Of a stretch of 64,000 nt of DNA, positions 8,404-60,000 are shown one piece after another. Origin of the DNA: Tribonema minus (taxonomy: Eukaryota > Sar > Xanthophyceae > Tribonematales > Tribonemataceae). Made by a program: the position numbers and the translations under genes. Where the stretch lies: NCBI GenBank assembly GCA_017506865.1, contig JAFCMP010000069.1:1-64000 (forward strand), given 5' to 3'. How positions within the stretch are numbered: the stretch's first letter is position 1; each line of letters begins with the position of its first letter. Below the pieces are notes generated by a model. The model had not been told where the DNA came from. It saw only the letters and a program-made list of their open reading frames with translations, and did not search any database.

Positions 8404-11400
8404 ATGACGGCGTGCAGAAAGCGTGCCGACAGCTGGGGGGACCACCGCGCCGGCAGCGGCAGCGCGGCGCTCAGCATGGACGCGGACCTGCACCGCCAGT
8501 TTGCGGGGCCGCGCTTCATCAGCAGGTGCGTGTGGGGGCAGCGCTCCGGTGGAGGGTATGTATGCTTTAAATGTTCGTGGGGCCGCCATGCATATCAGCA
8601 GGTGCATGCGGGGACTGCGCTCCATTGGTTGGTATGTATGTAATTATAAATGTTTGCGGGGCCGCGCTTGATCAGCAGATGCGTGCGGGGGCAGCGCTCC
8701 GATGGAGGGTGTGTATGATTGGAACATTTGTCAGCGCAATAAGAATTGGTATGTAGAAGTACATATGTTTGATTCAAGCATTTGCGGGGCCGCGCTTCAT
8801 CAGCAGATGCGAGCGGAAAGAGCGATCCGATGGTTGGTATGTGTGTTTCAGCTGTTTGCGGGGCCGCACGTCATTGGCAGGTGCGAGCGGAAACAGTGCT
8901 CCAAACGCTAGTATGAATGCTTGAAACGAGTCATATCACGGGGTGGGGGGGGCACGCCAACGGACAGTTTGTGCTCGGGCTTCAGAGAAGTGTCAGATGA
9001 CATGTGTGACTCTCCTGCGACTTGATGGGTTTGCGGGAATTGCCGCAACTGCGTCAAATGACATATGGGACTGCCCTGCTGCTTGTGAGGTCGCGGCAAG
9101 AGCCCAGGATTGGTATGTACGTGCATGAGGCCTCTCTCGGGGACGCCCACGGCAAATGAAACTTCATCTTTAAAGTCATCTGCTGAGCGTCGTCTGCCGC
9201 CTTCACGCCTGCTATCTCGCTGTGCACTGCTGCAGCCAGATGACCGTGAAAGAGGCTATTGCAAATGACTGGGCAACCGTCAAAACCTACTTCAAGAAGC
9301 AGATCTGCTGCATCTACAAACGGTGAGTGACGGAAGCGAGTGCAGCATGCTTTTGGGGGCTGGATTACGTATGGACTTGTATTTATAAAGGCCCAAGGGA
9401 GGCCGGGTTGCCTATGCAATCGAAAAGCTTGCGTCAACGAAGCAGCCTAGTCTGCGCTGTGCCCTAGGAGTTTGGATACCGGCGCCGCAACGCAGCCCAG
9501 CATTCGCGCTCCACGTGTGTATGCCATGACGCGCTCCGCCAACTCCCGCGCCAGCGATATGCTCAGCTCAATGTGGATCTGACGCTTAGCTAACCCGGCC
9601 TTGCGTAACACATCTGCCTTCCCCCCCCCTGAGCACAGTGCTGAGTGCATTGCCAACTCCTTAAACAAAAAGGCTTGTCTGCTTGCCCAGCCGTCCGTAC
9701 GACTCCTGCACGAATGGCACAAAAGCCCAAGATGACGTCAAGGTGCCGGTGTGGTGCTTGACCTTCGCGTCCTCCCCCACCCCAGCAGCATAGCCGTCCG
9801 TGTTCGAGGCATTTGTTTTGCCTGTCAGGTACGAGCTCGCTGTGGGCGCGCGCACACTTGTGTCTAGCACTATTCCCTTGTTACGGTATGCACTGCTAAA
9901 GTGCAGACACCCTGGGTCAATGACTGTGTCCGCCCGATACCCCGGTACCTTGAAGACGCTAGCGTCCTCATTGCGGACAATAGAGACATGGTGCTGTCTC
10001 AAGATGCGCTGTAGGCACCGCTTTTGGGCAGTGTGTGTCGCGTTGTGCCCCCGTATGTGCTGGCTGGGGCAGCTGATCGCATGCGTGGAGGTGGGCTCAC
10101 GTCACTGCACCGCCATGGGCACACCTCGCCCTGTATGCCCCACCCGTCTATAAAGATCGCAACCAAAATCATCGTGGCTGCTGCCATACTGGACATGGGC
10201 GCCGCACCCGGGCGGTCATTGGCAGCGGGTGGCACGCTCATCCACGCCATTGCCCCGGACGCACGCTGGCTGCGCAGCTGCGCCAGGACCCGCGCGCTAG
10301 CCTGTTGGCGGCGGCGGCTGGTGTCACGCGAGTCACCAATAAGTGTAGCCTGCGTCGGCTTGCCCACGGCACCAGCCGAGGCAGCCTCTAGGTCCTCCAC
10401 CAGGCAGTCCTCGTATTGACGTCGAAGAACATTTGAAAGGCCGGCTTGTAGTCCGTGCGTGAAGTGACCGCGCCGGCGGCGGGGCACTACCTTCCTGCAG
10501 ATCTCGTCAGCATAGGCCTCCCAGTCGTCGTCGTCGTCCTCCTGCCCGCCGCTGCAGCTGCTTTCTTCCGCGCTAGTTTGTGTTTTAGCGGGCGTGGAAG
10601 AGGCAGCCGCGGCAGCGGCTTGAGGGCCAGGTACGGTCGCCGCCGCAGCGGCCGCCTCGGCGCCAGGCACAATGCCGTGGGTGTGTGGGGCTGGCTCAGT
10701 GGTCCCCGTCTCCGTGACGGCAGTTGCGGCGTAGATCGCTTGCACCGCAGTGGGGAGCGTCGACGCTGCGGCCGTCGTATCTGCTGCCCACCGTAGCAAC
10801 GATGCTGGGAGCTGCTCGGCCACAGCTGTGCGTGATTTTTCGCCGCCATCAGCTGTCAGCGCTCGCGTAGAGCGTCGCACGGCCTCGATGATTGGCGGCA
10901 GTCCCTGGTCCTCGCGTATTGCGCATGAGTGCTGCGCGAACCAGGTGACTGCGCCGTGTTCGTCAGTGCCGAGCCTCAGGGCCCCTGCTGCCACAGTGGC
11001 ATGAATTATTGCAGGCCGCAGTGTTGTGCATGCCTGGGCCGTGTATGCGGCTGGTGCCAGTAGCCCCAAAAGCGGCATGCCCAGACCGCCTCGTCGCTCC
11101 GGCAACCGTGACGCCCGCAGTGGCACTGCGATGTCCGTGAGTTCTGGCGGGCCCAAGCGCGGCAATACCAGCACGCTGCCACTGCTGGCTACCTCATTGT
11201 CACCAGCAGTGCAGGCGGCCAGCAGGTGTGACTTCATGACTGCCGCGGTAGCGCAGCCGTGCAGGTGCAGCATGCCTTCAAGCGTCCATGCACAGAACCC
11301 GTCAAATGCGTGCAGCCATGTCTCACTCAAAGCCGTGTCAACGACCCGAGCTAAGAAGCCCATGCGCTTCGTCAGTGACCTGCGCAGAATGAACTGTGCT

Positions 11401-14400
11401 GCCTGTAGGTGATGCCGCGCTTTTCCAGCTAGCTGCCACGACAATTGCCATGTCCCTGCGTCAACAAGATGCTTGCTCATGGCAGCATGCACATAGGCTG
11501 GGTGCCCTACCGGTACCCCGACCGACGTAAAGCCCTGACTGGATTCTGGCATGGTGGCGTCCACAAACGGTATGTCAAGGGCGCGCAGGCGTGCTCTGGC
11601 CGCTTCATCAAACACTGTGCCGCGCATGGCGATGGCCAGCGACTTGTCTGGTCGAACGCGTAGGCCCCTTGCCGCAAGCCGACGGATCACCTCTGCCACC
11701 CCAGCGGCCGCTGCATCGTCGAAGTAGGCAGCTTGCAGCACGTTGAGGTCATCCAGGAAAGCGCAGTGCGGGGCTGGCGGTTCCGCTGTGCTGTGGCCGT
11801 AGGCCGGCATACTGCCGGGCGTCGCATTCACTCCATCAGGGTAGAAGAGTAGGAAGGCCGCTGCCACTGCAAAGTACAGCGGCCCTAGAGGGTCCCCTTG
11901 CTGGCACCCTAGGTGGGAGCAGATAATGCGAGCTTCACCGTTCACCTCCACTCGCATCTCTGGGGCAGTGTCACCACAGTATACGGACTCAAAGTGCGGG
12001 AGCAGCTCCGGACAGAAGAGCATAAGACCCCGCACAATGGCGGCGCGATCCACACTGTTAAATGCGTTCTCACAGTCCAGCTGGGTTGTGGTGCCATACA
12101 GCTCGTGCCACACGCGCGTGCGCGCTGCCACATGCTCGACGCCAGACCGGTATCCTACGCCAAACTGCGACATGGAGGCCAGCAGCCCCGATATTTTGCC
12201 CTTGACACTCCGTGCCGCTGTGGACCCGAGGAGTCTGCGCCACACACTGGAGCAGGCGATCGGACGCCGCTTCTGTCCTATGCCTGAGAGGGCCGCGGCG
12301 CGGAGAAGCCGTTGCGATTGCTCCGGCAGCAGTTCGGGCTCAACACATGTGCGTGTATTGCTCTAAATGTTGATGTGTCATCTTTTTCCGACCAACTCCT
12401 GCAACGCCTCAGCGCATTTGCTCCTGTTGACAATGCTGAGGCGGAACTCATCAATGACTGCCTGTTTTGTTGTGAGCGACAGTGCACAGCCGCCTGCCTT
12501 GTCAACCGACCTACCATGCGCTGCTCGCCTCGACATTGCCTCTGAGCTTCACTCCGCGCTGGATGTCTGCAGCGACAACTGAAACGAAGGCCGTGCCGCC
12601 ACCACTGCTCGCCAGCCTTCCGCAGCTTAGGTTGCTGCACACCTACTGTATGTTGCTTGCTTGACAGACCTCTGAGCTCCGCTCCGCACAGGGCAGCACA
12701 ACGATCGTCATGCGGCCCTCACTGCTTGCCTGCCTTCCGCACTGCAGTGCTCCGTAGCCTACAGGGTCTCTGCATACCTACCGTATGCTGCTTGACTCAA
12801 CAGGGCGCATGTTCAGTACGCCGCAGCGATGGCTGCGCAGCCCTTGCTTGCTGACTGCGTGGCTTTCGCGCTGCAGTACTCGCAGCCTCCATGGTTACTT
12901 TGACTACCTACCAAATGCTGCTTAACGCATCAAGGACTATAACATTCCTGGTGACTGCATGCCTTCCTGGTACGGCAGCGCACCACAGTTGAAGTTGTAT
13001 TCGTTTCACACGTTTGCTGACATTTGTCATCAATTCACAAGGCCTTCGAGGTTCACTCGGTGCGGCCAAGCCCTTCCGGCTCCCACTGTCTGCCTGCAAT
13101 CCCTCAGCTGCTGTGCATAACAGTCCCGGTGGTTGACTGCATACCTACGGTATGCTGCTTAACGCACCAGGGCCTCCGAGGTTCACTCAGCTCGGGACGT
13201 CGCAGCATTGGCCGCGCAGCCCTTCCCTATCGTCAAGACCATTGCCGGCTACAAGAAGTCCTACATCTCACACGACGCGGGTGCGGGTGGCATCTGGTAC
13301 ATGAATTCATGAATGAATAAATGAAACAGTAACAGTGAAGTGCATGTCTGCAAACAGGCGTACGTCTCGCACGACGCGGGCGCAGGGCTGGTGGAGGGCA
13401 TCCTGAAGTCCCATCAGGGACATGAATTCATCAGTGAATGGTTGAGTAGTAAATTTGGGCCTGCAGGATGCGTGCACGAAGTTTGTGTGAGGCATCATTG
13501 ACACTTGAGCAGGTGCGCTACATGCATGCACGAATTCATGAATGTGTGTATTTGAGCTCGGAGGTTGCACGGCTGGTGTGGGGCAGGGTGCAGGGTCCTC
13601 TGCGTGAATTCAAGCATCGCCTGATTCATGAACTAGCACATTCATGAATGAGCTAATTTATGAATGAGCGGGCTTGCCCTTGAATGACATACGCACACCA
13701 CAGGTGGCGGGCGCTGTAAAGGTCGGTGTGAGAGAATGCGTGCATGACTTCGCAGCATTGAGGGGCTGCTGCTTGTGTGTGAATAATGTTGAACCACGTC
13801 CATAGCTGTCTGCGTGGCCTGTGTTGTGCTCTGCCACAGTTTGCGTGTTGTGCAGGCCTGTATCACGCCCCATTGGCCATCATGCTTGCACTTGCACAGT
13901 AGTGGACTGTCAACCCAATCCCTTGTCCCTTGAACAAAGAAATATGAAATCGCAACATACCCGTCTTACATGGATACCTACGGTATGGTGCGCCTCTGTG
14001 TTGCAGGCTTGGCGTACGCCTTGTTGGCCAACATGCCGGCACAATACGGGCTAGACACATCGCTCATGCCACCCTTCATCTACATGCTCATTGGGACTTG
14101 CTCCCAGATTAGCTTCGGCGTCACTGCCATCGAGGCGCTCTTTGTAAGTTGAAGTTTTGTTTAACATGAAATACAGTACTTCGTGCTCTTGTGAGTGACC
14201 AACTGCCCGCATACGTTCGTACTGCTGCTTTCAAGCGCCAAAAGCAACTGAGCGGATGGAATATATCGTGGTCAGCGTTTTGTGCCTCAGGTGCTGCAAG
14301 CGCATTTGCGCATCACGAGAGTCGCTTGAAGTTGTGCGCCGCCACGGACGACTCTCTCTTCCTGCAGAGAGCTAGACTAGCGACACCTTCCATCCATTGA

Positions 14401-17460: not shown

Positions 17461-17857
17461 TGGTGCTTTGCGATCGCGGCCTTCCAGGGCTGGAGAAACA
17501 GCTAGCTGGTGCAGCTCGGCAAACAGCAAAGGCGGTGCCAAGCGCCCGCATACAAAGGAGCAGAGCAAATTGTGCAACTGGCAACAGAGCAGGCGACGTT
17601 ACCACTGCAAGAAGTGCCGCGGTCCAGCAAGCATGGCACTCAGCATTACTTCTGTGAGTAATGTGGTGAAAAAGGAATCTGCCAGCACGGAAAGGAACGC
17701 AAGACGTGCAGGGCTTGTGATGGTGAGGCGTTTTGCGAGCATGATAAGCGACGCGCACAGCAGTTGCAAGGAGTGCGGCCCATACAAGCGCGGCATGCGC
17801 CGCGACCAATGCAGGGATAGTGGTGGCACGAGCTTGTGCGATCACGTGCGCTGAGCG
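17460..17857 (+). pseudogene. Decayed relative of the CxHG-repeat protein at 20 kb
   Basis: From about 17630 the plus strand encodes, with an in-frame stop and later frameshift, KHGTQHYFCE, then CGEKGICQHGKERKTC and ACDGEAFCEHDKRR. These match segment for segment the better-kept HGRQHYYC, CGGKGICEHGIERKTC and CGGSVFCEHGNRR at 20.5 kb. A tail in another frame reads GGTSLCDH. The TGA in HYFCE*CG and the loss of frame after DKRR mark it as a pseudogene. It lies about 2.9 kb from its relative in the same orientation, which suggests a local duplication. Confidence 0.65.
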
Positions 17858-18685: not shown

Positions 18686-18739
18686 GTGCACTCAGTGCAC
18701 TCAGTACAGTTTTGCCTGGTGGTGGCAAGAGGTAGAGAG

Positions 18740-23704: not shown

Positions 23705-23765
23705 GGGTGAGGGTTAGGGTTACGGCTAAGGTTAGGGTTGAGGGTAGGCCTAGGGTTAGGACATC
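23705..23765 (+). repeat. Degenerate TTAGGG block
   Basis: About 55 bases of TTAGGG variants (GAGGGTTAGGGTTACGG, then AAGGTTAGGGTTGAGGG and CTAGGGTTAGG). Interstitial and flanked by single-copy DNA; probably a relic of telomere-repeat insertion at a healed break. Confidence 0.75.
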
Positions 23766-25277: not shown

Positions 25278-28200
25278 TTACATGTTCGCCCTGCAACAAA
25301 TGAATGAGTCAGCTGTCGCATTCACAGCGCTGCGTACCTTCTCAGGCTTGGCAGGAGCTGCCTTTGCTCCCTTCTTGGCAGCTGCTGCTGCGGCGGGCGG
25401 GGCCGCAGCAGCGGCAGGCGCCTCCTCAACCCCCGCAAAATACTCCTGTCACCCATGCGGAATTGCGGGAGACGTCAACGTGAGATTGCCGAGTCCGTTC
25501 AACCTGCCCTCAATATGCTGCGCTCTCCTACACTGTGGGGAAGTAACTAGCATCAACCTGTGCCTGCGGGGGCGTCTGTGGAGTGAGGGTGCTCGATTGC
25601 CCCCCATGGCACGCTGCGGCAAAGTGCTGCTGAGAAGTTGAAGTTTGCAAGGGTGCCGCGCGCAGTTTCAGACATGCAAACCATGCGATGCACTGCCAAG
25701 AGGGCAGGCACATGCACATCCAGTCGTGCAATTCAAGTGTTACAGCTTAGTGGGCACCAAAACATCTGCCAGCGCGGCGCGCGGTGACATGTTCAGACGG
25801 TCGCTTATGGCATTCACATCGGGCGAGAAACATGGGGGCCCAAACATTCTTCCTTTTCTACACCAGCGTCGAAGGAAAATGACCTGGACTTTGCCTCGAA
25901 AAGAGGACGAATGATCGGGCGACGCAAGGGCCTTTCGAGACAAAAAGGTGCAGAACTGCTGAGGTTGGACCGCCGCAGGTGACGCCCCATGCGTTTTAAA
26001 TGGCATGCCCAATGCGTGTTATACGGCATTTTTGTTCTGACTCAAAGAGGCCACAGCATGAACTGCCCCCTTCCTGATTGAAACAGCCATAGTTGAAGTA
26101 TATGTGCATACCTTGCTGCCCGTAGGGTCGGCCTTCATGGACTTTTCGCCGGGCTTCCACCCTGCAGGGCACACCTCCCCGTGCTTGTCTGTGTACTGGA
26201 ACGCCTGCACCAGCCGGAGAGCCTGCGGCAGCAGTACACGCGGAAGTGTACCAAAGTGTACTACTTGGTGTAACATGCGCACTATGATTTTGGTTTACAT
26301 ACTTCAGGTACGACAGTATTTCGAGTACTGCAGTATTGAACACTGCAAGGATGCTCGCTGCCAGCTACGCTGTTGTTGCATGGGGGGCACACTTATAGCA
26401 GTGTGTTTACAGGCGGGCCCCCCGACTGATGCTTCAAAGCTGAACACAGCCTCAATGCACTACGTTAGCTCATGGGCATCTTGACATAGCCATTCTCTGA
26501 AGTGGATGTTCACAGCGTCCTCCTCCTTGAACAGTAACATGAGACTATAGCACGGCTGTAGCACAAATATTCTTTAATAACCCCGCAGCCATCCAAACAG
26601 TATGGCACACATTCTGCTGTAAGAGCGCGAACGACAAGTGTGCTGGTGGCGTACAAACATACCTCTTCGGCGTTGCGGCCCACGGGCAGGTCGTTGATGG
26701 TGATGTGACGGACGACCCCCTTGTCGCTGATGATGAACAGCCCCCTTAACGCTATCCCCTCGCCCTCAATGAGCACCCCATAGTCCTGCGGAACGCATAA
26801 CAACGAGACCCGGCACACAGATTGATCAGCGCTGTGGGCGGTTAAAGCAGACGCGTGCGCACAGATTTCATTTTTGTACAATGAAGTACCAGTCGTATTC
26901 CTCCAACTTCATCTTTGCACTCCCCCCTACACCGCTGCGGCTTGTAGACTCAGTGGAATCCGCTATATGGATGAGCGACGTGCAAACTTCAACTGTATGT
27001 TTGATGCTCTAGCAGGACAACATCGAGCGTGCTGCTACAGCCGACAGATGTTAATGGCCGGCATGTGCCTATTTGGGTTACAGTTACCAACATTTCCGCA
27101 CACACCCATGCGTCACCACATAATAGATCGCACTCCTACAATAAGTCTGGCCCGCTTGGGCACTTTTGAGTCCTCCAAGTCTCAGCCAGCTTGTGCGAAA
27201 TCAGGGTGGCACGCTCCGCTCTGAGGATGTGGGTTGTCATCGCCGCCAGCGCACCTGCTTTTCCACGTGACTGACAAGCGATGGGTAATAGTGAGCGGGG
27301 ACCAAAAGGAGTACCACTGAGCTCACTGAGCTGCTGTGAATGTTGCACGCTGTTGAAGTAGGCGACAGCATCGTGGTGCGTGCTTCGCGAGTGGATGCTG
27401 AAGTAATTTGTTGGCAACGGTCACCAAGAATGTGCATGGCAAGTTATACATTATATTGGGCTTGCTCACAGCGTTGAAAACAGGAAGTTATGTCCTGCAG
27501 CCACTTCACCTGCAGAATTGTTCAAGTATGTGACTGCCTGTGTGTGAACTGGAGGCAAACGCGAATGCCTGCAGTATGTGTTAACTGCAATAGTACGCTT
27601 GATACGCTCGACCATTGGCCAGTGGCGAGATCGACAATGCCTGAAACTTTCCCGCATCAGCGTTGAGCCTACCTTCACCACAATACTGCATGGAGTTCAC
27701 AGCTCACCTTGGAGACCCCCACACGAAGCCCTGGCAGGCGTCACCCTGGGGTGTGTACTCGCAGTACCTATGCCCCTTCACCCCGGCCCCTTTGTCAGGC
27801 ACAAAGGCACTAGGACTCCGTTTGCATATGTCGTGAGAGACATGGCAACAACGCTCTCCAAACTCTACATACCTGCGAGACTTTCAGCACGCGGTCCGCC
27901 TAAGTAGGCATGCTGACGGCGCCAATGACTTTCAGGCTACCAATGCGATGCGCGGGCAGCTACATGATACTACAAGGTAGCAAAGAGCATGCTCGCAGTA
28001 TACCCTAGCCTGATTTTCAAACATGGGCACTATGGCCCCGTTTGCATATGTGATGGGAGACGTGACAATGCAGGTCGCCCAGCGGCGTACATGTTGACCA
28101 TACTTACATACCTTCGAGACTTTCAGCGCGCGGTGCGCTAGGATGGGCATGTTGACGGCGCCAATGACTTTCAGGCCACCAACACCATGTGCTGGCATTT

Positions 28201-30600
28201 ACGTGTGTACCAAAGAGCATATGTGCAGTATGACTTCGGCCTGATGTTGAGGCACAAAGGCACTAGGGCTACGTTTTCACATGTGATGCCGCAAGCGCAC
28301 GTCACCCAGCGGTGCACATGTTTACCCTACATACCTACATACCTTAGAGACTTTTAGCGCGCGGTCCGCCAGGATGGGCATGTTGACGGCGCCTATACCC
28401 CCCTCCTTGCGCGGCTTCTCCACCCACGACAGGTGGCAGTACTCAGAGTCCGTACTGCATCCCACCAGCTGCGCAGGAATGAGCATGCACGGCAGTGAGG
28501 GGCAGATCGATCAGATCGGTGCAGATTCTGATGGTTGATTCTGGGGGAGGGGGGGGGCACTCGGTCGGTGTCGCAGCGCCTCAGCTGCGCAGGGGGCGTA
28601 GAGCAGCGTGCAAAAGTGAGGTGACTTCAACCGAGGCAGCCTGAGAAGTTGAAGTAGCCGTGATGCTACAGAGATGTGTTGCGTTGCAGCATTCTGTTAA
28701 AAGTGGCAGGTGCCAGTGCTCCAGGACTGTGCTGCAGCAGCAGCAGCTGCTGGTGCGTGGCTTCACGAGCAGTAACACAATCATCTTCGAGACATGGAAT
28801 GAAAGCGCAATTCCATTTAGTATTTGTGGTAAATATACGGTGCTGCTCGACAGGTCTTTAGCAAAGGGTGGCCATCCACCAAAGTGTGTGCTGCAGTTCA
28901 CCAGCTGCAGAGCGCGCGGAGAGGGCGATGAACAGGATGGTCGACCGTGTGCAACAAGCCATGGTAGCATGCTGCAACTTGCGGGCTGCACAGGGCGTGC
29001 AGAGCAGCGTGCACAAGACCGTCGAGCAATTGACCACACACCGAGCCAGTGCTCAAATTGAAGTTGATACCCAGTTGAAGATGACGAAGATGCAGTTGCA
29101 CTCCCAGTCGCGACGCGCACGATTACGGGCATACATACAAGCGGAAGCAGCAGCAGTGCGTGACGCCATGCGCCCTTGTTCTCTCCAGGAATACTGACTT
29201 GACGGAGGGCGCCGGGTGTACATCACTTAGGGTTAGGCCCTAACCCTAACCCTTGTCGGCCACGACCAGCGGCAAAGCACGCCCCCCGTTGTGAAACATG
29301 CGGCCGCCATTGAGCTTTGCGAGTTTACGCAAGCTGTGTGGCGCTACTTCACAGCAGCGCCGACCAGCACGCAGCGCAATACTGACAACGATACATGTAT
29401 GCGTCATGACTGTCGTCATTGCGTGACACAGACAATCTGGGGGTACATCTAAGGTAACATGGCCAGCCAATCGGGCGTCACGCTAGCCAGCACCACCAAA
29501 AGGCCGTACACACACACAAAAAGTACAATGGCCACGTACGCACTGACCTTGTGCACTACCGAAAAGAACCGTGGGCTGAAGCATGTCACATGTCTGGTGC
29601 AGTTTCATGAAAAACCGAATCAAAAGATTGTAGAGCTCTAGGTGACGAGGGATGGTTAGCCGCAAGTGCCTTCCACCAACATATACTTTAGTGGGCCATG
29701 ATGGACACTCACCTCACAGTCAACCTTCTTAAACTCCTCATAAGCCTCGCTGAACTGTATGATCTCCGTTGGACACACAAAGGTGTGGTCCAGGGGCCAG
29801 AAGAAGAGCACCAGGTACTTGCCCTTGTAGTCCTTTAGCGAGACCTGTGGCGTGCACAGAGCGTGACGGAAATGTTCACATACACTTTGTGAAGTGCACA
29901 CAGCGTGACGAAAATGGAAGTGTTCGCATACACTTTGTGTCATGATAGCCGCGCAAGACGCAACACCAGGCGCAGCACAGCACAGCCAGCCGCCTTTGCT
30001 GCTGCCTGCAGAACACCACATGCTCAGCAGAAAAGAAATAGACCATGTGCTCTCCCAGGCATAAGTTTATAAAGGAACATATGGCCTTCCTCGGCGTGTC
30101 GCAACGGTAGGTCCACGGAATGCGAGCAGATATATTCATCTATATAAGGAATATTGTAGCAGGATGAGCATCACAGCAGGCCTCACACATGCTGGATTTC
30201 TGCGCCAGCTCAGCATGCTCGCTGCACACCGGGTAGAGTACCACTGCGCACATAAACATCGCTGTTGCTTGCTGCAGCTTTGCTTCATGTCAGCATGCCA
30301 TGCACTGCACGAGCTGTGTGCTTCTTTTCAATCCATGTTCCGTGTTGCGGTGGTGGGCGACTTCGCTGGTGCACAAGCAGCAATCAGTTCATCCTGCCAA
30401 TTTGTCGGAGCTAGACTACCTTCATCGATACGGCACTGTCGATGTGCAGCCACCAGCAATGATAACATTGCCAGCCAGCAGGGGCACACCAGCACATTTT
30501 GCGCATCTTGATCAAACTGATCGCTTGCCTTTTTGAAGGTCTTGTCCGGCATGAGCGCATCTGCGGTGAAGTCGGGAGCTGCTTTGCCCACGGTCGCCAT
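25278..30600 (-). CDS. 2-Cys peroxiredoxin (six exons)
   Basis: Reduces hydrogen peroxide and organic peroxides using thioredoxin-type donors. Exons on the minus strand: 30600-30529 ([20 protein letters not shown]), 29844-29713, 28468-28343, 26785-26663, 26222-26112 and 25445-25278. All five introns are phase 0. The peroxidatic Cys lies in TFVCPTE (residue 48) and the resolving Cys in HGEVCPAGW (residue 169). Intact [12 protein letters not shown] (a GGLG variant) and a YF pair (190-191) match hyperoxidation-sensitive eukaryotic Prx. Intron 1 has a GC donor (AAG|GCAAGC). After YF comes an unusual Ala/Lys-rich tail ([20 protein letters not shown]); the frame then runs 19 more codons to a TAA at 25278, or a GTACGC donor at 25337 could lead to another exon. 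Length is about 224-243 residues against roughly 200 usual. No targeting peptide is evident, so it is probably cytosolic. Confidence 0.93.
25795..26020. repeat. Diverged dispersed repeat, copy A (Prx last intron)
   Basis: Shares a colinear series of words with 40440-40680: ATCGGGCGA, GGGGCCCAAAC, CCAGC(G/T)TCGAAG, AAA(A)TGACCTGGACTTT, TCGAGAC, AGGTGCAGAACTGCTGA or AGGCGCAGAACTGCTGA, GCGACGC and GTTTTAAATGG or GTTTTGAATGG. Both are about 220-240 bases long and in the same orientation. It is probably a short interspersed or decayed transposon fragment. It lies inside the intron between peroxiredoxin exons 5 and 6. Confidence 0.65.
27735..28400 (-). repeat. Three-copy array of the Prx exon 3 donor junction
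   Basis: The true exon 3 / intron junction at 28343/28342 (minus strand; exon end encodes [13 protein letters not shown]) is repeated twice further into the intron, with pseudo-donors at about 28110-28111 and 27871-27872, giving spacings of 231 and 239 bases. Each unit carries 60-70 bases of exon end (NMPILA-R-LKVS still readable in the nearer copy), the GT donor and about 160 bases of intron that include GTTTGCATATG or GTTTTCACATG. The pseudo-exons lack the 5' part of exon 3 (no GGIG motif), so using them would lose conserved residues. Confidence 0.88.
29224..29256. repeat. Head-to-head TTAGGG/CCCTAA block in Prx intron 2
   Basis: TTAGGGTTAGGCCCTAACCC joins a forward and a reverse telomere-like run at a GGCC centre. 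It lies inside a transcribed intron. Confidence 0.8.
29850..29945 (-). repeat. Two-copy repeat next to the Prx exon 2 acceptor
   Basis: GTGCAC-AGAGCGTGACGGAAATG...CATACACTTTGTG and a near copy with GTGCACACAGCGTGACGAAAATG...CATACACTTTGTG lie just upstream (minus sense) of exon 2. The repeat begins at the acceptor itself, whose complement reads CCTGTGGCGTGCAC. Unit length is about 45-50 bases. Confidence 0.7.
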
Positions 30601-33297: not shown

Positions 33298-35290
33298 TCA
33301 GCACTCTGCCATGTGCCTTGTGCTGCTGTTGCTGTCACTTGGGCTGCTGCGGTAACCCCTTTCAAGCATTGCGCTCACACTGCTGGCACCACCAGATCCC
33401 TCTGGCGACAGCGGCACCGGCGGCACTGCTGCACAGTGCGCGCAGCTGCCGCCATAGCCATAGCTGCTGTCTTCATTGCCGCAATCACGGCACCGACCGG
33501 CAAAGCCACCGAGCATCGCGCCGCCACCGCCGCCAACCCGCGGCGCCGCGCCTGCGGGGGCAGCGGCGGCGCTGGCAGCAGCGGCAGCGGCAGCGGCGGC
33601 GGCAGCGGCGGCGGTCTCCAACCCGTCGCGCACTGCCTCCTGCGCGGCAGCGATGGACTCGTGGAAGCCCTTCATGCGCACGGGCGAGGAGCGCCGCCTC
33701 AGGTCCTTGGCGTTGCACGTGTCGGTGAAGACGCGGCACGTGTGGCGGTACGCGGCGAGGCGTGACGCACCGCGGAAGGCGGCGTCCCACATGGCGCCGA
33801 GGGGGACGCGTGCGCGCAGCCCGCGCGTGCCGGGCGGCCTGCAGCAGCAGCGAGCAGCAGCAGCTTATTAACATCAAGATATTTCATAATTTCAAGTAAT
33901 AAAAATTTAATCAAACGTGTATTTTTAAGCAAAACTGAACTGGAATGTGGCGTCCTACATGGCGCCCAGCACCACGCGTGCGCACAACCCGCACGCCCTT
34001 GGCGGCCTGCCAGTGCGGAGCGGTGATGACAGTGAGTCATGGTGCGGTAAAGAGCGGAGGTGACTCAGAGGCGTGATGGAGCAGAAGACGTCTGGGAGAG
34101 TGAAGATGACTCTCCGCCATGGCGGCAGAGCTCAGCATGCAAAGAATCGCGTAGGGCATGGCGAGGCTTCCTGCACGACGCTGCGCGGCGTGCGCACCGT
34201 CAGCGTGCGGCGCATGCACGTCACCTCAGAGGCGTGCGCGCATTGCGCAGCTGGGCGTGACACGCATGAATGTGAGCTCACACATACTCTGGCGCGCTTC
34301 ACTCTAATCGAGCGGAGTTGGCGGACAAAGGCTTATTTTGCTGCACGTGATGGCACATCAGCGCATGCTGGCCGTGCGCCTGCTGCGGTCCTTAGAGACA
34401 TGCAGTGATTGTGTCCGTGTGTGCTGCAGCGCCAGGATAGGCACTTCCAAGAGTGCGGCACAAGTGGAGTGGGCACTTATAACAGGTGGCCCATGGGCAT
34501 GTGTTGTCCCAGAATGACCTCATAGCACCTTCAGAGGGCCGTTGATGAGTGTGAGCATGGTTGCAGCAACGCCAACACGATGTGATGGATGCCGAGGTGT
34601 GGGCCCCGCTCAGGGGTAAACTTTGAAATGACATCATCGCACAAGCTGCTGAGCGTCCAGTGACGCTTCACTCCGATTAAGCAGCCTGAGAGAAAAGCGC
34701 TCAAGGGGAGGGCTACATGCAACGGCTCGTATAGGGACACAATGATTCTACTGCGACAAGCAGAGCGCTGCCGCATGCTTTATGAGCACTGCAAGCATGT
34801 ACTACCACTTCATGTGGCATGATGCAGCAGACGGTCGCTCCCACCTGCTGAAGCAGTGGAAGATGATGTTGGAAGGGCTGGGCGCCTCGTCCGCCGCCGC
34901 GATGAACGCCTCTGCCTCCCTCACGGTGCGCCGCGTGTGCTGCTTGATGCCGTCCCAGTCCACGATGAGCACGCGCACGAGGCCCGCAACTTCCTTCAAT
35001 GTCAACTCCCCCTGTTGTCCATCCGTCGTCCCCCACAAGCCGAATGCCGGCAGCGGCCCCAGCGGCGGCGCCAGCGGCAGCGCCATGGGCGCTTCCGCAC
35101 CATGCCTGCCGCCGTTTGATGTAGTAGTTGAAGTGTCGGCAGATGAAGGTCGGGGGGGGTAACGCGAGGCAGGGCTTAGGGGGCTCCACGTTGTGCGCTT
35201 CGTTGGGCGCTGGCTCTGGGTGGGGGACAGACACGCCGAGCTGCGGGAGCGCTTGACCCCTGTAATGGTTTGCTGTGCCAGCTGCTGCAA
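33298..35290 (-). CDS. Two-exon protein of unknown function
   Basis: Exon A ends at 34845 (donor AGCAG|GTGGGA, phase 2). It encodes a Pro/Ser-rich start and then LTLKEVAGLVRVLIVDWDGI, KQHTRRTVREAEAFIAAADE and SNIIFHCFS. Its beginning is uncertain: the frame opens at 35290, a Met lies at 35084-35086 (MALPLAPPLGPLPAFG), and an upstream exon is possible. Exon B is 33838-33298, joining in phase after a CTGCTGCAG acceptor. It encodes RPPGTRGLRARVPLGAMWDA, AFRGASRLAAYRHTCRVFTD and RMKGFHESIAAAQEAVRDGL, then a poly-Ala stretch, a Gly/Cys segment (GRCRDCGNEDSS, CAHC) and a Ser-rich end. The AMWDAAFRGASRLAAYRHTCR block looks like a conserved domain, but I cannot name it. The matching phase at the splice supports a real gene. 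Confidence 0.6.
33951..34017 (-). repeat. Echo of the exon B acceptor junction
   Basis: About 65 bases inside the intron repeat the start of exon B with its acceptor: GCGTCCTACATGGCGCC, ACGCGTGCGCACAACCCGCA and GGCGGCCTGCCAG here, against GCGTCCCACATGGCGCC, ACGCGTGCGCGCAGCCCGCG and GGCGGCCTGCAGC at 33783-33844. The two copies lie about 170 bases apart. The echo keeps the GC-rich exon bases in an otherwise AT-rich intron, which makes it easy to see. Confidence 0.85.
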
Positions 35291-39933: not shown

Positions 39934-39945
39934 GTACCGTAACGC
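39934..39945. repeat. Target-site duplication, right copy
   Basis: GTACCGTAACGC, identical to 39304-39315. Confidence 0.9.
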
Positions 39946-51066: not shown

Positions 51067-54000
51067 ATGGCTGAAGAAGAGGAGCTGCGAGAGCAGCAGG
51101 CCCTGGACACCAGAGCAGCAGCAGCAAACCTCGAATCGATACCAGAAGCGAAAGCAGCACATCTTGTCGCAGCGTGTGTTGCAGTCGTGCAAGGCGTCGC
51201 TGACAGCGGAACCGAACCAGATGGGCGGGAAAGCAGCGGCAACAGCGTCACTGCTAGTGCGCAGGGGGCAGTGGCGGACAATACTGGCGCAGCGGCAGCT
51301 GACCAGCCGCGAGCCGCGCCAGCAGCTGACGCATCGCATCTCCCCGAAGGCGGCAGCGCTCTCACCGCAGCAGCAGCTGCAGCCCTGCACCAGCAACCCA
51401 CGGCACTTGCTCCCGCTATAAACCCACGCGATGCCGGAGTGCACGACCGCTCCCACGGCTGCGTGGACGCAGGCACCGCGCCGCTGAGGGCCGCGCCCTC
51501 CGAGGATGAGCTCTTCCGCGGCGTCTGGAGGCTCGACTCCGCGAGCCAGAGCGCGGGGCGCCTGCTGTCGGAGGAGCTGCACGAGCTGGGCGCCGACGCG
51601 GGGCGCGCCGTCGGCTCAGATGCGGCAGCGCTCAGTAGATACGGCGGCGCCAGCGGCTGCGTCGTCGTCACGCCGATCGGCCACGGCGGCTTCGTCGCCA
51701 CGCTCGGCGGCGCCGCCGCTGCAGCTGACGCGCGAGCAGTAGCGCTCGGCGACAGCGGCGGCGCGCCATACGGAGCCGCGCGCGCCGTCATCATGGACGA
51801 AGCGCCTGCCGGCGCAGATGACGAGGGCTGGGTGTTCATCTCGACGCGGGGAATTGTGTCGCCGCTGGGGCAGTCCTCGGGGGCAACGGCGTTCGAAGCG
51901 TCGCAGCGGCTGACGTGGCAGGCGTCGGAGGGGGGGGGGGCGCTGGGGTCGGGGGGGGGCGGGGCGGCGCCGATGCTGGGGGCGGCGGGCGCGGAGCGCG
52001 CGTTTTCGAAGACGGACCGCTACGGCATCTTCGTCACCAGCGAGAGGGCGGCGTCGCCGCGCGTGGTGCGTACGCTGAGCACTGCTTTGTCTGGTGTCTT
52101 GTTGTACTGCTGTATGGCCACTAACATGCCAACAGCGCCGGCAGCAGCAGCACCGCCCAGAAGCTAATGGCAGCGCTGGCAACTCTGCAAGGTCATGTGG
52201 TCGTGCGCAGGATGCTGCGACGCAGGCCGCGCACCAGCGCATGTACGGCGTTATACCGCAGGCAGCGTGATGTAGTGGCGGTTGTGTGGTGTCAGTGCGG
52301 ACGTTTCTGGCCACATGAATTGTGCTCTGTGTGCTGGGGGGGAGGGGGGGTTCTCGGTTTCACCTGTCAGTAGAGGCGTTGCGGCGAGGGACGATGCTCA
52401 ACGGTACATGGTGCTGCAGCTGCTCTACCGAGGCTGACCATGGCACACGGTGCTGACATTTTTCTACCTTCGGGTACAAAAAGGGTCGCTGGCATTTATG
52501 ACAAGTGTTGGATGCCAGAGCGGCCATGGATGTTGCAATCAAGTTGCTTCGCGACCACCGGGCTGACCTTCAGTAGGAGACTTGAGCCAGTCTGACTAAC
52601 ACTTTGCAGTTGTTCCTGCATTGTATAGTTGAAATCTGCATAGTTGAAATCTGCTGTTGACTTCCCTTGATATTATTGCCGATCATGGTTCCCTGGACTG
52701 CTTGATGGCACGGCTGCAGGGCGAATCTGAAGTATTACTGTCTTCAAGCTACGGGAAAGTCGACAAGAAGGGGAGGCACATGCCCACTCAGTCAACTGCT
52801 GAGTATGCATGGTGCATATGCGCGCAAACCTCTGCTCTAGGCCATTTTTCAGCAGCGTATTGCGATGGCGCCACCACCCTATTCACCATTTGCAGGGAAC
52901 CTGAGCGAAATTGGCCATTGCAAGTTCACCGTACGGGTGCGCAAATGGCACTCCCCCGCAAGGCACCATAGCGGCTGCTATGTGTTAAATGGCCGCAGTC
53001 ACTCGTTGTTGCTGACAGGGTTGATAGATACAGCGTACGCCGTATCAACCGTATGTACCGCATGAGCGTATACTTCAAGTATATGAGTCCCGCCAGGACG
53101 ATTATAGGGACCGCTGCTTGCAGCAGGCACAAGCACCGTATGTATTGGCTTCTCAGGGCTGTATACATACATCACTAACGTACACACGAAGACATGCTTC
53201 TAGATCTGACTGTGTACGTCAACCCCCTGCTTGCTGATCGTTGCTGCAGGGGGCCCCTGCGCAGGCAGTCAAGGCCAAGGACGACGAGAGGTCGCACAAG
53301 TGGCTGACGATGCGGGAGCACTGGGACGCGCTGGTGGGGAAGAAGGGCGGCGAGAAGCTGCTTAAAAAGAGGGCGCGGAAGGGGATTCCGGACACCGTCA
53401 GGGGGGAGATGTGGCAGGTGAAACCGCCCACTTTGCTTGGGTTGTGGAGAAGTATAGTTTTACGTGCATGTGTGCATGTATATTTCCAAGTACGTGGTGT
53501 GGCATCTGCTATAGTATGCAATCAACAAAGTGCATGCGTGTGGCTTTGTATGCGCATGCCCTGCAGACCCGCACGCTAAAAGTGGTCGCGTGCGTAGCTG
53601 TTTCTGTAGCCGGCGTGTGCGTCCGTGTGCCTATGTGTGTGCTCGCAAGTGCCGCTTCCATGCGCAGTGAAGGTACAGACTAGCGCCAGTGTTTTGTCCA
53701 CGGAGCTCTGTTATTGGTGTCATTTTAAAGTGACCAAGTGCATGACAAGAGCGCTTTACCTATGACCACTGCAAACCATTGAGCGCATAGACCAATGCAA
53801 TCATGATGCGGCCTCAGAATGCATTCCAGCAGGCCTCAGGGCCTAAACGCGCATGTACAGATATATTCACACACTGACATCTAACCCTAACCCTAACCCT
53901 AAGGCGTGTCACCACCAGCCTTCACCCGGCTAGGGCCCGTTGTGGCACTGTCACCTGCGCCATGTGGCTCTGAACTGACAACGTGCCGACTGCCCATGTG

Positions 54001-57000
54001 GCTCTGAACTGACAATGTCCCGTCTGCGCTTGCATGTCCCTAACGCCGGATATGCTCTCTCACAGCTGCTGTGCGGCAGCAAGACGCTCATGGCATGTTA
54101 CACGCACGCTGACAGAGGGGTGTAGGACCCCATGCAGCACTGTCAGTCGTGCCATGTGGCTTTTAAATGATCACGTCCCGTCTGCGCTTGCGTGTCCCTG
54201 ACGCTGGACGTGCTCTCTCTAAGCATGTACAGACCACACTTAGAGGAGTGTCACCACCAGAACTAAAGCCAACTAGACCCTCATGCAGCACTGTCACTCG
54301 CGCCATGTGGCTCTGAAGTGACATGCCAACTGCGTGCTTGCCACCAATGCCCTCTCTCGCAGCTGCTGTCCTGCATGTTACACGCACGCTGACAGAGGCG
54401 TGTCACAACCAGAAGTACAGCAGCCGGCTAGACCCTCCTTGCTGCACTGTGTGACGCGCCATGTCGCCACGAACTGACATGCCATCTGCGCTTGCGTGTC
54501 CCCAATGTTGTACGCTCTCTCGCGTCGCTCAGCTGCTGTGCGGCAGCAAGACGCTCATGGCCGCGCACCCCGGCGTGTACGACGCGCTGGTGGCGTCGCA
54601 CGTACAGGTCGACGGGCCCATCGAGGAGGACATCCCACGAACCATGTGCGTCACTTTTTGAAGTTCATCTTTGGTACTTCAAGAAGTATTTCATCACTTC
54701 TTTCCAATTTTTTTAAGGAGGACATCCCGCGAACCATGTGCGTCGCTTTTTGAAGTTTATCTTTGTTGTTTCATTTCTTTTTCCCATCAAGCAAGACAGT
54801 CCGCGCACCATGTACGTCACGTTTTGAAGACTATCTTTGTTATTTCATTACATTTTTCCAATCAAGGAAGACACTTCCGTGCACCATGTGCGTCAATGTT
54901 TGTTACCGACTATCTTTGTTGTTGAGATTTTCCAGCAAGAAATTTGTGCGTCTCCTTTCAAATTTTCAGCGCGCAGCAAGAGACCAGTAATATGGTCGAC
55001 TCTGCTCTCAGGTCGTCGTGTGCGCAAATCTGCCTACTGCCAGCGTCATCATCCGACTATAGCCACTCTGCATTCAGCAATTCGTAGCGCAGTCTTGCAG
55101 TGCCGCTGCCTTGCCATAGCGCAACTGAGGGCGGTGACGCCCCGCAGTCATGGGGCAGTGCTCAGTTGCAGTGCTGAGTTGAAGTAGACAAGTGTCGCCA
55201 TGCCAGTGTCTGTGCTAGAAGCCGTGCGCATGTAACGTGACGCTGGTGCTGTACTGCGCGTGTACTTCGCGTGTACATCTGTACGCCGCTTCTTCCCCAT
55301 GGCTGCCTGAGGCAACGTGGTGTGGGCTGTTGCCCACTAGCTTGTAGTTGTTCACTGTCAGAGGTAGTAGACAGCAGGGTGACCAAAGCAAACAGGAGAC
55401 CAACACTGTCCGTGCGCTGCTAGAATTGTATGTATTGCAGTCCGGCCACCAGCAAGTGTAAATTCCGTAACCTTCAGCGTGTAACGGCGATGAGACGACC
55501 ATGTAGCCGCCATCGTGCTCCACATGACCATTTCATGGAACCCTGCTTCTGTCGCACTGCGTGCCCGCAGGTTCGATCATGAGATGTTCTGCAACCACAG
55601 CCACTTTGAGGGGCACGGCAAACTGCGCCGCGTGTTGCTGGCCTTTGGCCGGCGCGACAGAGAGGTGCAGTACTGCCAGGCAAGTGATACATATATTCAG
55701 TCTACTTTAGACTTCACCCGAGTGCCTCGTGCTTGCCACCTGGCTTTGCGTAGGCGGCACAACGTTGCCTGGCATGAATATGCACACAATAGGTAAACTT
55801 CATGTAGAAGCACTGAAAGTACAATCAGCATATCAGCGCTCTGCAGCTTCGTGGCGCTGGTCAGTGGGGCAGGACCGCAGGGAGACAGATATTGTAGCAG
55901 CAGCCCATCAGCAGAAAAGTTGCTTGCGGCAGCGGCATCAAATAGTGTGTTGTGAATCGTGCTGTGGCTCAGTTAAGGACCCGGGGGGTGCTTTTTGAAC
56001 GAGTGACCCCAGCAGCAACTGCAGTTACTGTTCCCCTTGGTACTCAGGTACATTTGTGTACCTCCTCGTGTACAGTAGGTAGTTTCTCTTGTTCGGTTGT
56101 GCACGTCGTATTCAGCTGGGAGTGCTGATACTGGTCACTGCTGCTCCTTGTTGGCGTGCTGCTGCAGGGCATCAACTACATTGCAGCTCTGTTTCTGCTG
56201 TACATGACCGAAGAGGAAGCCTTCTGGCTGCTGGTGAGCTGAGCTGTGCCATTAAAAAACACACTTTTATTGAGCGCCTTGTGGGGTTTTTATCATATGT
56301 AGCATGCTGTCATGTTTGTTGCTGGTTCAGTGAACCCACCATGCCTCGTAGGTCTGTTGCACGCTCCTACTTCGCGTCCAGTCATTTGGAGTCTCTGATT
56401 AATCTTGCAGTGGAACAATGCTCATTCGGTCAGCACTCAACGCAGGCAGATCACATCGCAGCTCCACATGGAACACTGCTCGTTCGGTCACCACTCAACG
56501 CAGGCAGATCACATCGCAGACGGTACGCGACGTGCGGCGAGTGTCTGTGCCGCCGGTGATTATTGCTGATTTGCTTTTTACAGAGTTTGGGGGATGCCTT
56601 TACTGTAGCTGATGTTCAACATGGCGGTACTGTCTTGGAAGCGCAGACTTTACACGTAGGTACCGGCACTGCTCAAGAATAGCGCATGTAACGGTATTGG
56701 CGCGCGCCTAGTTTGTTGTGGACGTCTGCTTCGGCTGGCATGCCTGTGTCAGTGCTCAGTACGTCAGCGCTCACCTCTGTGGTGTAGTGCTGATGCAAGC
56801 ATGCAGATCTAATTATCGCATAAGCTCGTAAACTCACACCAGCTTGGTTACATGCTGAAGGTCAATTGCGTGGAGTCGTGAGCGACGTGCCTCGAGGACG
56901 TCCAAGGCTGCGTGTGCCGCACAACACGATCGCGACGAAGCGCAGCAGAAAGACGAGGCCGGTCATCAGCAGCTGGTGGAAGGGCAGCAGCCCGAGAAGG

Positions 57001-60000
57001 TGGAGGAGGGAATGGACGACCAGGAGAAGCAGCAGGAGAACCTTTACCGCCTGCTCGTGACCGGCCTCGTCTTTCTGCTGCGCTTTGTCGTGATCGTTTT
57101 GTGCGGCACACGCAGCCTTGGACGTCCTCGAGGCACGTCGCATGGCACCGCCAATGGGAGTAGTCGGAGCCATGTGTACTAAGCAAAGCACCGTTTGCGG
57201 GGACTCGCCGTCGTTGTGGTGTGGTTGTGGCAAGCCTGCGGGCGCAGGTTGGTCAATTAAGTTCAAACGGGATACCTCGTGTGGTGACGCCCCTAAGCAA
57301 GCCGTTTGACATCAACAAGACCCTGTATGAGTCAGGTGTCGCTGGCTGTAATCGGGCATTAGTTATCGCGTCTAGCAGTTGTAAAGTGCGATTCAAACTT
57401 AGAAGTAGCAAGATGTTGCGCTTCTGTGGTGCAGTAAACTTACACAAGTACTTCGTATTAATTCTCGCTCAAGGCGCGAAAAGCCCAGATGATGGTCTAA
57501 CTTGATGCTGCTGTACGGAATCTGCATGTCGTGTGACTTCTGAAATTGTCTCAACGACAACCACTCAAACGCCGCCGCCGCCAAATGGCATCTCAGGATC
57601 CTCCCCTGGTACTTTCCACAAGAGTCCAGCCTCCATTGCACCATACCTGTGAACACATCACAGAACTCAGTCGCACTCATATTATTGGTGCAGCGACTGC
57701 TAGATATAAGAGCGCTCGATGTAAGAGCGGTCACAGTATAAGAGCGGTCTGACGGCTGAACATGGATCTGGTCGATATAAGAGCAGAGAGCAGTTTGGTG
57801 GTGCTCGGGGCTGACCGCTCTTATATCGTGTCCACCAACCACTGGCTGCCTCACGAACGATGCCTGAACAGCGGATTCTGCGTGATACTCAACAACGCTT
57901 AAGCGCGTATCAATCAGTCACAGCGTAGCGCACGGTGCAGTTGCTTTCGGCTTAATTCGTAGCCAACTTCAACTGTTGGCAGACTAACCCTACTTAAATA
58001 CTTCAACCCCTATGTGTAGGCTAGGGTTAGCCTAGGGTTCGGGCTAACCCTACTCAAGCACAAGGACGATATAGGAGCGGTCACGGTGTAAGAGCGTTGA
58101 GGCTGGCGGGACGGACCCGCTCTTATATCGTAGCCCTCGCTGTAGCTGAGACGCTGATACAGCCCTGTGACACAATGCGGGTACTCACAGCCGGCGGCGG
58201 CCGCTCCTGTTGAGACGATAGGCAGAAACCAGTGGACAGGGCTGCCCCGTGTGGTGCACACCCATAGCCCATGGGATGCTGCATGCTTCTCACTTGATTC
58301 TTCAAATTTACACTTACTGGACTGTTGGTGTACCAAGTGCAGTATTGCCAGTCCAAGCACGTGAACCGAGTCGAAACCTGTGCCTCGATTCAAGTTACTG
58401 ACCTGGCATTGCTGCTACCATAAACACTGGCGCTCTTGCCCCAAGTTTTTTATTGCTGGACCGTTGGTGCGTACCAAGTGCAGTACTGCCAGTACCACGC
58501 ACGTGAACTTGAGTCCAAACTTGTTCTTTTAAACCTGTACTTGACGTCTTGGGTACCACATGGCGTCGCTGCTGTGATCATCACTGGCGCTCTTTCCCTG
58601 TTGTTTCTGTTTTCTCGCTGCCTCGCCCTTCCTTTAGGCATGCGTGATGCAGCGACCGCGCGCCCCGCTGCGGGAGCTGTTCCTTCCTGGCATGCTCAAG
58701 GCCAGAGAGGCAAGCAACCATTCACGCGACGTACTGCCTGACACATAGTGTATTGTTGGGCGCCGCATCAAGTCGCGTGTCTTGCAGTGGAGCACTGCTG
58801 CTCTACTTTAGCAGTGTCGACTCCTACCTGGCATGCTCAAGGCCAGAGAGGCAAGCCACCACTTGGCGCAACGCACTGCATGAAACAAACAAGTGGATTG
58901 TTGGGCGTCGCACCGCGCCGCAGCGTTCCTTGGCGGCTCTTGCAGTTGATCGCTGCTGTTCTACTTCAACGGTGTCTACTCCAAGCGTCAGTGAGAACGC
59001 GACGCGTGGTCTGGGCCCCTCGGCGCCTGTATGAGCATGCGCTACACACGCACACATTCTCTACTTTAAAGTACATCAAATTTGTGTGTGCCCCACGTTT
59101 ATGCGGTGTATGATCAGATGGAAGGTTCAGCATTCGTATTTGCATGCAGTGGGATGCATTACACGGGGGCTTGCTCATGGCTTATGTAACTGATCGCACT
59201 GGCTGACTGTAGTTGTCAAGTAGTAGGCTCAGGTTGCCCAGCATTGCAAGGTCAATGGACGGCCGATGCAATGCTGCTCGCTCTCGAGACTTGATGGAAG
59301 TACACTCATTTTTCTCTGCATGATGGACTGCCTGATGTTGAAGTTCGTACTAGTTTCGAATTGGCATCAATCGCAGTTTGCCAACGGTGCGTCACCACAG
59401 CTCGCTCAGCCTTCACGTGCCGTCAAACATGCTGTCTCGTGCATCGCTGCCGCAGCATACATCATAGCCACTTGACACACAGTGCATGACTCAGCAATCA
59501 CTCCCCTGCTGCCATCGTGTGCGTGCGCTCGTTTGTGCAGTTCCACTACGTGATGGACGGTCTGGCGTTGAAGTTCACGCCTCGCCTCCACAACCACCTG
59601 AAATCGAACGACATCGACCCCACTATGTACGCGCACCCGTGGTTCATGACGTGCTTTACGCAAGTGAGTGCCGTAAAAGGAATCAACCCTTTGGTGTACC
59701 CTGTACATAATACATAACACTCACACAGCAGCAGTTGCGTTCAGGCTGAATGAAGCACTTCGAAGTATGCATATTGAGAGCGCGCGGCTCAACATATGTT
59801 TAGGTTCAGAATGACATGATGAGGTTGGATCCTGCTAAGCACTGGCATGCCTCTTCATGCAGGATTGCACCCTGGTTCTCATTCAATTCTATGTAACAAC
59901 AATAATGCACCAGCCGCGAGTCTTGTGCGTGCTTGGGTCCCTTTGTTGCTCATCTCTGGCACGGTGGTGAGGTAGATGCTCTTAAGCTTTAAGCCTGGTG

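What the first reader, a model, noticed from the sequence alone, without database searches (positions are those of the whole stretch)
8499..58995. Junction echoes: introns seeded with tandem copies of their own exon-intron boundaries
In at least five genes, introns contain decayed copies of the adjacent exon edge plus splice site: donor arrays (transporter exon 1 x5, Prx exon 3 x3, TBC exon 3 x4, TBC exon 6 x2) and acceptor arrays (transporter exon 3 x4-5, TBC exon 3 x2-3, unknown gene exon B x2, TBC exon 7 x2). The copies always straddle the splice junction instead of lying at random. Tandem duplication across an exon edge is known as a route of intron gain, but repeated, bilateral use across neighbouring genes is not something I know described. 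It could be a local intron-growth process tied to splicing or R-loops, or a reservoir of alternative splice sites.
Basis: partly seen in the sequence, partly recalled or inferred. Interest (0 to 1): 0.88.

Follow-up and report, generated by a model that had tools for sequence, protein, structure and literature searches.

The report
Introns growing by exon-edge copies
In a yellow-green-alga-like genome, many introns carry decaying copies of the very edge of the neighbouring exon together with its splice site, which suggests that introns here grow largely by local duplications centred on their borders.

Summary
The echoes are real. 'Always' is wrong: TBC introns 5 and 8 hold three arrays away from any junction. 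The window belongs to a 158 Mb genome whose TBC protein is closest to yellow-green algae. In 79 homology-defined introns of nine dynein heavy-chain genes elsewhere in it, 47 of 55 arrays cross a splice junction, at 23 of 79 donors and 25 of 79 acceptors. With exons removed before detection, 28 of 37 arrays belong to a junction-crossing repeat, against 12 expected from uniform placement. A neutral simulation gives 43% and 28%. Outside dynein genes the bias is not significant (6 of 11). The echoes decay as free intron sequence, so no reserve of splice sites is being kept. Best reading: recurrent local duplications of about 60-180 bp, concentrated at exon borders, lengthen introns. What causes the concentration is not shown. 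A new variant of a known process.

The parts
8499..8926 (+). Donor array x5 of sulfate-transporter exon 1; the real junction is 8525|8526; copies at 8499-8575, 8573-8654, 8652-8720, 8781-8856, 8854-8926 (unit about 75 bp, 27 exon bases)
   Evidence: TRF; self-blast; alignment. The gene name comes from a Sulfate_transp match of later exons; that exon 1 belongs to that gene is read from order and frame, not from a spliced alignment
12538..13224 (+). Decayed array upstream of sulfate-transporter exon 3 acceptor (13219|13220), mostly intronic, reaching about 5 nt into the exon
28343..28468 (-). Peroxiredoxin exon 3 (donor after 28343)
   Evidence: spliced alignment; AhpC-TSA domain of the assembled protein
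27797..28396 (-). Donor array x3 of Prx exon 3, unit about 231-240 bp; echoes 28074-28165 and 27865-27926
33774..34010 (-). Acceptor array x2 of an unidentified minus-strand gene (real edge within 33774-33842, echo 33942-34010)
   Evidence: exon not confirmed by homology
54533..54645 (+). TBC exon 3
   Evidence: RabGAP-TBC domain of the spliced protein
53902..54561 (+). Acceptor array of TBC exon 3 (junction 54532|54533); exon-bearing echo 54020-54094, intron-only copy 54178-54219
54617..54923 (+). Donor array x4 of TBC exon 3 (junction 54645|54646); echoes 54716-54773, 54783-54847, 54858-54902
58681..58982 (+). Donor array x2 of TBC exon 6 (GC donor, junction 58709|58710); echo 58822-58912
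59321..59346 (+). Weak echo of TBC exon 7 (26 nt, 85%)
56411..56519 (+). Counter-example: two-copy array inside TBC intron 5, no junction
58314..58524 (+). Counter-example: two-copy array inside TBC intron 5, no junction
60625..60762 (+). Counter-example: 69-bp two-copy array inside TBC intron 8, no junction

Best explanation
Introns of this alga lengthen by recurrent local direct duplication of stretches of about 60-180 bp that contain an exon-intron border (typically 25-105 nt of exon edge, the splice site, and some tens of nt of intron). Because the outermost border goes on being used, the protein is unchanged, the duplication is tolerated and can fix, and the inner copies become intron and decay freely. 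Fixed duplications are concentrated at borders more than random placement predicts; the likeliest reason is a higher duplication rate at exon edges, trimmed by selection against duplications that reach far into exons. Shown: the copies, their position, their free decay, and the excess over neutral models in the dynein genes. Inferred: that the outer site is the one spliced, that the excess is mutational, and that its cause lies in chromatin, base-composition steps or transcription.
For: In 79 introns accepted by homology filters (93 rejected), 47 of 55 arrays cross or copy across a junction, donors and acceptors about equally (22 D, 24 A, 1 both). Exons masked: 28 of 37 cross against 12.3 expected. 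With introns collapsed to one unit per array: 28 of 37 against 14.8, and 47 of 55 against 33.8 with doubled visibility granted to crossers. Neutral forward simulation: 229 of 533 and 122 of 434, Fisher P = 9e-10 and 1.4e-8. Leaving out any one of the eight array-bearing dynein genes keeps P < 1e-5 against a crossing rate of 0.48; one array per intron gives 38 of 43. The divergence pattern shows free decay. Introns with arrays are longer (median 783 against 517, P = 0.016). Shuffle control 0 arrays; arrays wholly within exons 0 in 32,274 exon bases.
Against: Outside dynein genes (17 introns of TBC, Prx and part of a Prp8-like gene) only 6 of 11 arrays cross, no excess over 0.48 (P = 0.45). At the loosest threshold the full-context excess weakens to 53 of 69 against 42.8 (P = 0.003). 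In two dynein genes (C537m, C61m; ten introns) no array crosses. The simulation was run with a few settings only and was not fitted to this genome. No RNA data and no second species. In 30 of 55 arrays the aligned parts of neighbouring copies are more than 10 nt apart, and a test of whether the spacer is decayed tandem sequence or foreign filler was ambiguous, so strict tandem duplication is not proven for all.
Confidence: 0.6

Rival explanations
1. No targeting: duplications strike anywhere. Those inside exons are purged, those across a border are seen for about twice as long because the exon copy is conserved, the outermost intron is protected from deletion, and many introns were short when the duplications happened, so most duplications crossed a border by necessity.
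For: Each ingredient is plausible and some are seen: exon columns diverge about half as fast as intron columns; the eight most array-filled introns collapse to 130-225 nt, or to the script's floor of 80, once arrays are reduced to one unit; non-dynein genes show no significant excess.
Against: Simulation with purging, frozen exons and edge protection gives 33-48% crossing (19-34% with exons masked) over six settings against 85% and 76% observed; the collapsed-intron null is also exceeded. The 36 of 79 introns without any array have a median of 517 nt, so introns are not generally short when free of detectable arrays.
Confidence: 0.3
2. Functional echoes: the copies are kept as alternative or back-up splice sites or decoys that regulate splicing.
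For: Echo donors are GT or GC in 35 of 36 aligned pairs. The copies sit where a decoy would act.
Against: Dinucleotides identical to the real site in 31 of 36 and 36 of 42 pairs, about what free decay at 8-10% per site gives (estimate mine); third codon positions and intron columns diverge about twice as fast as positions 1 and 2, with no extra conservation; unit length shows no preference for multiples of three (15, 20, 20 for remainder 0, 1, 2).
Confidence: 0.05
3. The introns themselves were born by tandem duplication of an exon piece holding AGGT (the classical model).
For: Same raw material: tandem duplication at exon sequence (PMC3443670, passages read).
Against: The AGGT model makes an intron whose start copies the downstream exon start and whose end copies the upstream exon end; here copies contain exon edge plus splice site plus the same intron flank, so an intron already existed when they arose.
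Confidence: 0.03
4. Assembly or gene-model artefact.
For: Single assembly, unnamed, no reads seen; gene models rest on homology only.
Against: Best-hit identities between copies are 69-97%, which mis-assembly of one sequence does not produce; the pattern recurs in seven of nine dynein genes, a Prp8-like gene, TBC, Prx and a sulfate transporter; the best dynein model reads as one long open protein (C113m: 20 exons, no stop).
Confidence: 0.02

Closest known systems
[quoted passage not shown] reviewed in PMC3443670, passages read; Gao & Lynch 2009 and Hellsten 2011 known only from citations there and recall)
   Same: Local tandem duplication inside a gene involving exon sequence and splice signals, tolerated because splicing removes the extra copy.
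   Different: There it creates a new intron from exon sequence; here an existing intron is lengthened, repeatedly, from both ends.
Potato RdRp duplication crossing an intron-exon boundary (PMC4974935, passages read)
   Same: One duplication that crosses an intron-exon boundary and copies intron end plus exon start.
   Different: A single recent case that created a new intron; here 48 of 158 junctions of 79 introns carry copies, at donors and acceptors alike, with no new intron inferred.
Intron sliding and tandem duplication in Drosophila (PMC2891723, passages read)
   Same: Duplicated splice-site-like sequence near intron borders.
   Different: Concerns new intron positions and AGGY proto-splice sites within coding sequence, not border-containing arrays in existing introns.
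Introners (PMC9860276, search listing with start of abstract only)
   Same: A process that adds intron sequence across a genome.
   Different: Introners are dispersed copies of one element; each echo array here copies its own local exon edge. Dispersed hits cover 3.2% of the bases of the 79 introns among 269 kb held.
Long introns of brown algae (Ectocarpus autosomal median 524 bp; PMC12477816, passages read)
   Same: Unusually long introns in a relative; 673 bp median in the 79 dynein introns here.
   Different: The passages seen treat transposons and tandem repeats in general; whether echoes occur in Ectocarpus was not tested here.

Membership tests
[quoted passage not shown]
   55 direct arrays against 2 inverted matches and 0 in shuffles; 25 of 55 with neighbouring copies within 10 nt or overlapping
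[quoted passage not shown]
   Copies carry the splice site with both its flanks, so the intron is older than the copies; intron presence in relatives not tested
[quoted passage not shown]
   Units straddle a junction rather than lying inside an exon; arrays wholly within exons 0 in 32,274 bases
Introners / transposon-derived introns | Same sequence dispersed over many introns | tested here: not met
   17 of 79 introns have any dispersed hit in 269 kb held, 3.2% of intron bases; the whole genome was not searched
Functional alternative splice sites | Echo sites conserved above neutral decay | tested here: not met
Functional alternative splice sites | Use in transcripts | not testable with these tools
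   No RNA data
Junction-targeted duplication (this proposal) | Arrays cross junctions more often than neutral models allow | tested here: met
   Dynein introns; not significant in the 17 other introns
Junction-targeted duplication (this proposal) | Raised duplication rate at borders before selection | not testable with these tools
   Needs mutation-accumulation or population data

The most novel reading that the evidence does not exclude
Exon-intron borders are duplication hot spots in this lineage, and border-centred duplication is the main engine that turned short introns into the long introns of yellow-green (and perhaps brown) algae: introns grow inward from both ends, and their interiors are largely decayed echoes of their own exons.
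Probability: 0.35. Interest if true: 0.85.

Novelty: new variant of a known kind. Interest (0 to 1): 0.7.

Why it matters
How introns get long without transposons is poorly explained. Here the process can be read in the sequence: 38 of 79 introns of conserved genes carry copies of their own borders (23 at the donor, 25 at the acceptor, 10 at both), each marked by an exon edge whose reading frame tells which copy is real and how freely the other decayed. That makes intron growth measurable event by event, and makes the question of whether exon borders are fragile sites for duplication directly testable. It also warns annotators: the copies look like exon ends with good splice sites.

Tried and rejected
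Donor-pattern search of the genome (GTAAGTNNNNGTAAGT): 13 hits against 84 for the reversed control, uninformative. Junction-anchored identity by gapped alignment was unreliable because free end gaps shortened the alignments; replaced by column counts. Transposon filler as the source of intron length: little dispersed similarity, though only 269 kb could be compared. Spacer test for non-tandem copies, on 13 of the 25 arrays with an 11-100 nt gap (those whose closest pair crosses a junction): global comparison found z above 3 in 0 of 13, but local comparison found p of at most 0.015 in 6 of 13, and simulated pure tandem duplications also gave such gaps in 30 of 150, mostly with low z, so no conclusion. 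Rejected: functional splice reserve, AGGT intron birth, assembly error (see rivals). Literature: ten searches, judged by the titles and abstract starts listed, showed no paper on border-containing arrays as a genome-wide route of intron growth; the library lacks most subscription papers, and Gao & Lynch 2009 was not held. PMC3488318 was looked at by passages and added nothing on this point.

Rows dropped: 93 of 172 dynein introns were excluded by identity, gap, length and donor filters that do not look at repeats; an earlier look at hand-chosen introns included some that the filter later removed. The sulfate-transporter and unidentified-gene arrays are in no statistical count because their exons were not fully modelled. 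Searches count aligned pairs, several per array, not independent events.
Full report
WHERE IT COMES FROM. The window is contig 69, bases 1-64000, of a 158.18 Mb assembly in 554 contigs. The spliced TBC protein of the window (nine exons) has its best relatives in Tribonema minus (64% over 99%), Heterococcus DN1 (72% over 78%) and brown algae, so the organism is most likely a yellow-green alga (inference).

THE OBSERVATION. A self-alignment of the window and alignments of each named edge confirm donor arrays at a sulfate-transporter exon 1 (x5), Prx exon 3 (x3), TBC exon 3 (x4) and TBC exon 6 (x2), and acceptor arrays at TBC exon 3 and at an unidentified minus-strand exon (x2). The gene names rest on Pfam matches (Sulfate_transp 4e-10, AhpC-TSA 1e-40, RabGAP-TBC 1e-45). 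The TBC exon 7 echo is one 26-nt match, and the transporter exon 3 array barely enters the exon. TBC introns 5 and 8 hold three arrays away from junctions, so 'always' is wrong.

IS IT LOCAL? No. I looked for a set of introns that had nothing to do with the finding. A Pfam search for the dynein motor domain AAA_6 gave 59 matches in the genome, and 16 stretches of 10 kb around nine dynein heavy-chain genes were fetched. Exons were placed by spliced alignment to dynein proteins of other organisms, and 79 of 172 introns passed filters on identity, reading continuity, length and donor. Donors: 73 GT, 6 GC; acceptors 75 CAG, 3 GAG, 1 TAG; median length 673. In these introns plus up to 150 nt of exon on each side, 55 local direct arrays were found at E below 1e-6: 22 donor, 24 acceptor, 1 both, 8 internal. 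43 of 79 introns have at least one array; 38 have a junction array, ten of them at both ends. Controls: shuffled sequence 0 arrays, inverted matches 2, arrays wholly inside exons 0 in 32,274 bases. The repeat unit is 62-182 bp in 51 of 55 arrays and longer in four.

IS THE POSITION SPECIAL? Border-crossing pairs are easier to see, because one copy of the exon part is held by selection. I therefore removed the exons before detection: 37 arrays remain, 28 of them crossing a junction when viewed in context, against 12.3 expected from uniform placement (maximum 24 in 200,000 draws). Introns may also have been shorter when hit. Collapsing every array to one unit gives 14.8 expected against 28, and for all 55 arrays 33.8 expected against 47 even if border-crossers are granted twice the visibility; thresholds from 1e-3 to 1e-20 keep the excess, weakest 53 of 69 against 42.8, P = 0.003. 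A forward simulation with substitutions, duplications, deletions forbidden at exon edges and frozen exons gives 33-48% crossing (19-34% with exons masked) in six settings, and in a larger run with one setting 229 of 533 and 122 of 434, against 47 of 55 and 28 of 37. No single gene drives this; the best array of each intron gives 38 of 43. Against it: in 17 introns of TBC, Prx and part of a Prp8-like gene (PROCN domain), 6 of 11 arrays cross, not an excess, although two of the five others begin within 3 nt of the donor; and two dynein genes with ten introns have no crossing array.

HOW THE COPIES BEHAVE. In 78 aligned pairs (several per array, so not independent) the exon part of echo and exon differs by 7.7, 8.6 and 15.3% at codon positions 1, 2 and 3, the intron part by 19%, with indels at 1.8% and 8.6% of columns. 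This is what one expects if the real exon is under coding constraint and the echo is under none. Echo donors keep the same dinucleotide in 31 of 36 pairs, acceptors in 36 of 42. Unit length modulo 3 is 15, 20, 20. So there is no sign that the echoes are kept as splice sites or exons. The exon part of junction-crossing hits has median 52.5 nt and maximum 105 (46 values), shorter than in the simulation (median 70; P = 5e-4); one further array (C113p at 11964) has an exon-only copy reaching 119 nt into the exon. The shortness fits selection against duplications that carry much exon, because then the inner site would compete (inference).

HOW IT MOST LIKELY WORKS. A stretch spanning a border is duplicated. 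At a donor the upstream copy, at an acceptor the downstream copy, goes on being spliced (inferred from homology, not RNA); the inner copies become intron. Repeats allow further gain (up to about seven units). Introns with arrays are longer (783 against 517), and removing extra units takes the median from 673 to 510. In some introns almost all sequence is array (C113m at 1101: 98%; C522m at 12255: 94%, at E below 1e-3), leaving an ancestral intron of about 160-200 nt. Why borders are favoured is open. The exon-intron step in G+C (65.6 to 54.0%), nucleosome placement and transcription are candidates; none was tested. In 30 of 55 arrays there is a gap of more than 10 nt between the aligned parts of neighbouring copies, and whether it is decayed repeat or filler from break repair could not be decided.

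KNOWN OR NEW. Tandem duplication is an accepted route of intron gain (PMC3443670, passages), and one potato duplication crosses an intron-exon boundary (PMC4974935, passages). Those cases make new introns. Border-containing arrays as a recurrent means of lengthening existing introns in many genes did not appear in the listings of ten searches. Ectocarpus introns are unusually long (median 524 bp on autosomes; PMC12477816, passages); whether echoes contribute there is untested.

Noticed in passing
window 9366-12362 (-) and 39316-39936: A 787-aa open frame with a reverse-transcriptase domain (RVT_1, 3e-8) lies downstream of transporter exon 2, apparently inside the gene; the stretch 9366-9987 has a 99.4% identical inverted copy at 39316-39936, so the element probably moved recently.
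   Followed up: partly
window 1433-5629 (+): A 1399-aa open frame in a region of 65-75% G+C also matches RVT_1 (1.4e-8), a second retroelement candidate.
   Followed up: partly
window 56882-57141: A 260-bp stretch inside TBC intron 5 that matches its own reverse complement (78% over its length), perhaps a foldback element; it may help explain why that intron is 2.4 kb long.
   Followed up: no
window 55680, 58710, 30528; dynein introns: GC donors are common: 6 of 79 accepted dynein introns, TBC exons 4 and 6, Prx exon 1. The Tribonema relative P0001 carries extra residues exactly after the TBC exon 4 edge, which looks like a missed intron in that annotation.
   Followed up: partly
window 8136-8420, 23699-23760, 29225-29252, 53880-53903, 57985-58050: Short interstitial runs of TTAGGG/CCCTAA-like repeats scattered through the window (read by eye; one).
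   Followed up: no
window 17596-20783: Two diverged stretches (73%) that by eye encode cysteine-rich repeats; the open frame 19710-20456 has no Pfam match.
   Followed up: no
P0043: A protein labelled as contamination in a sturgeon genome is the best-scoring dynein guide for five of the nine dynein genes.
   Followed up: no
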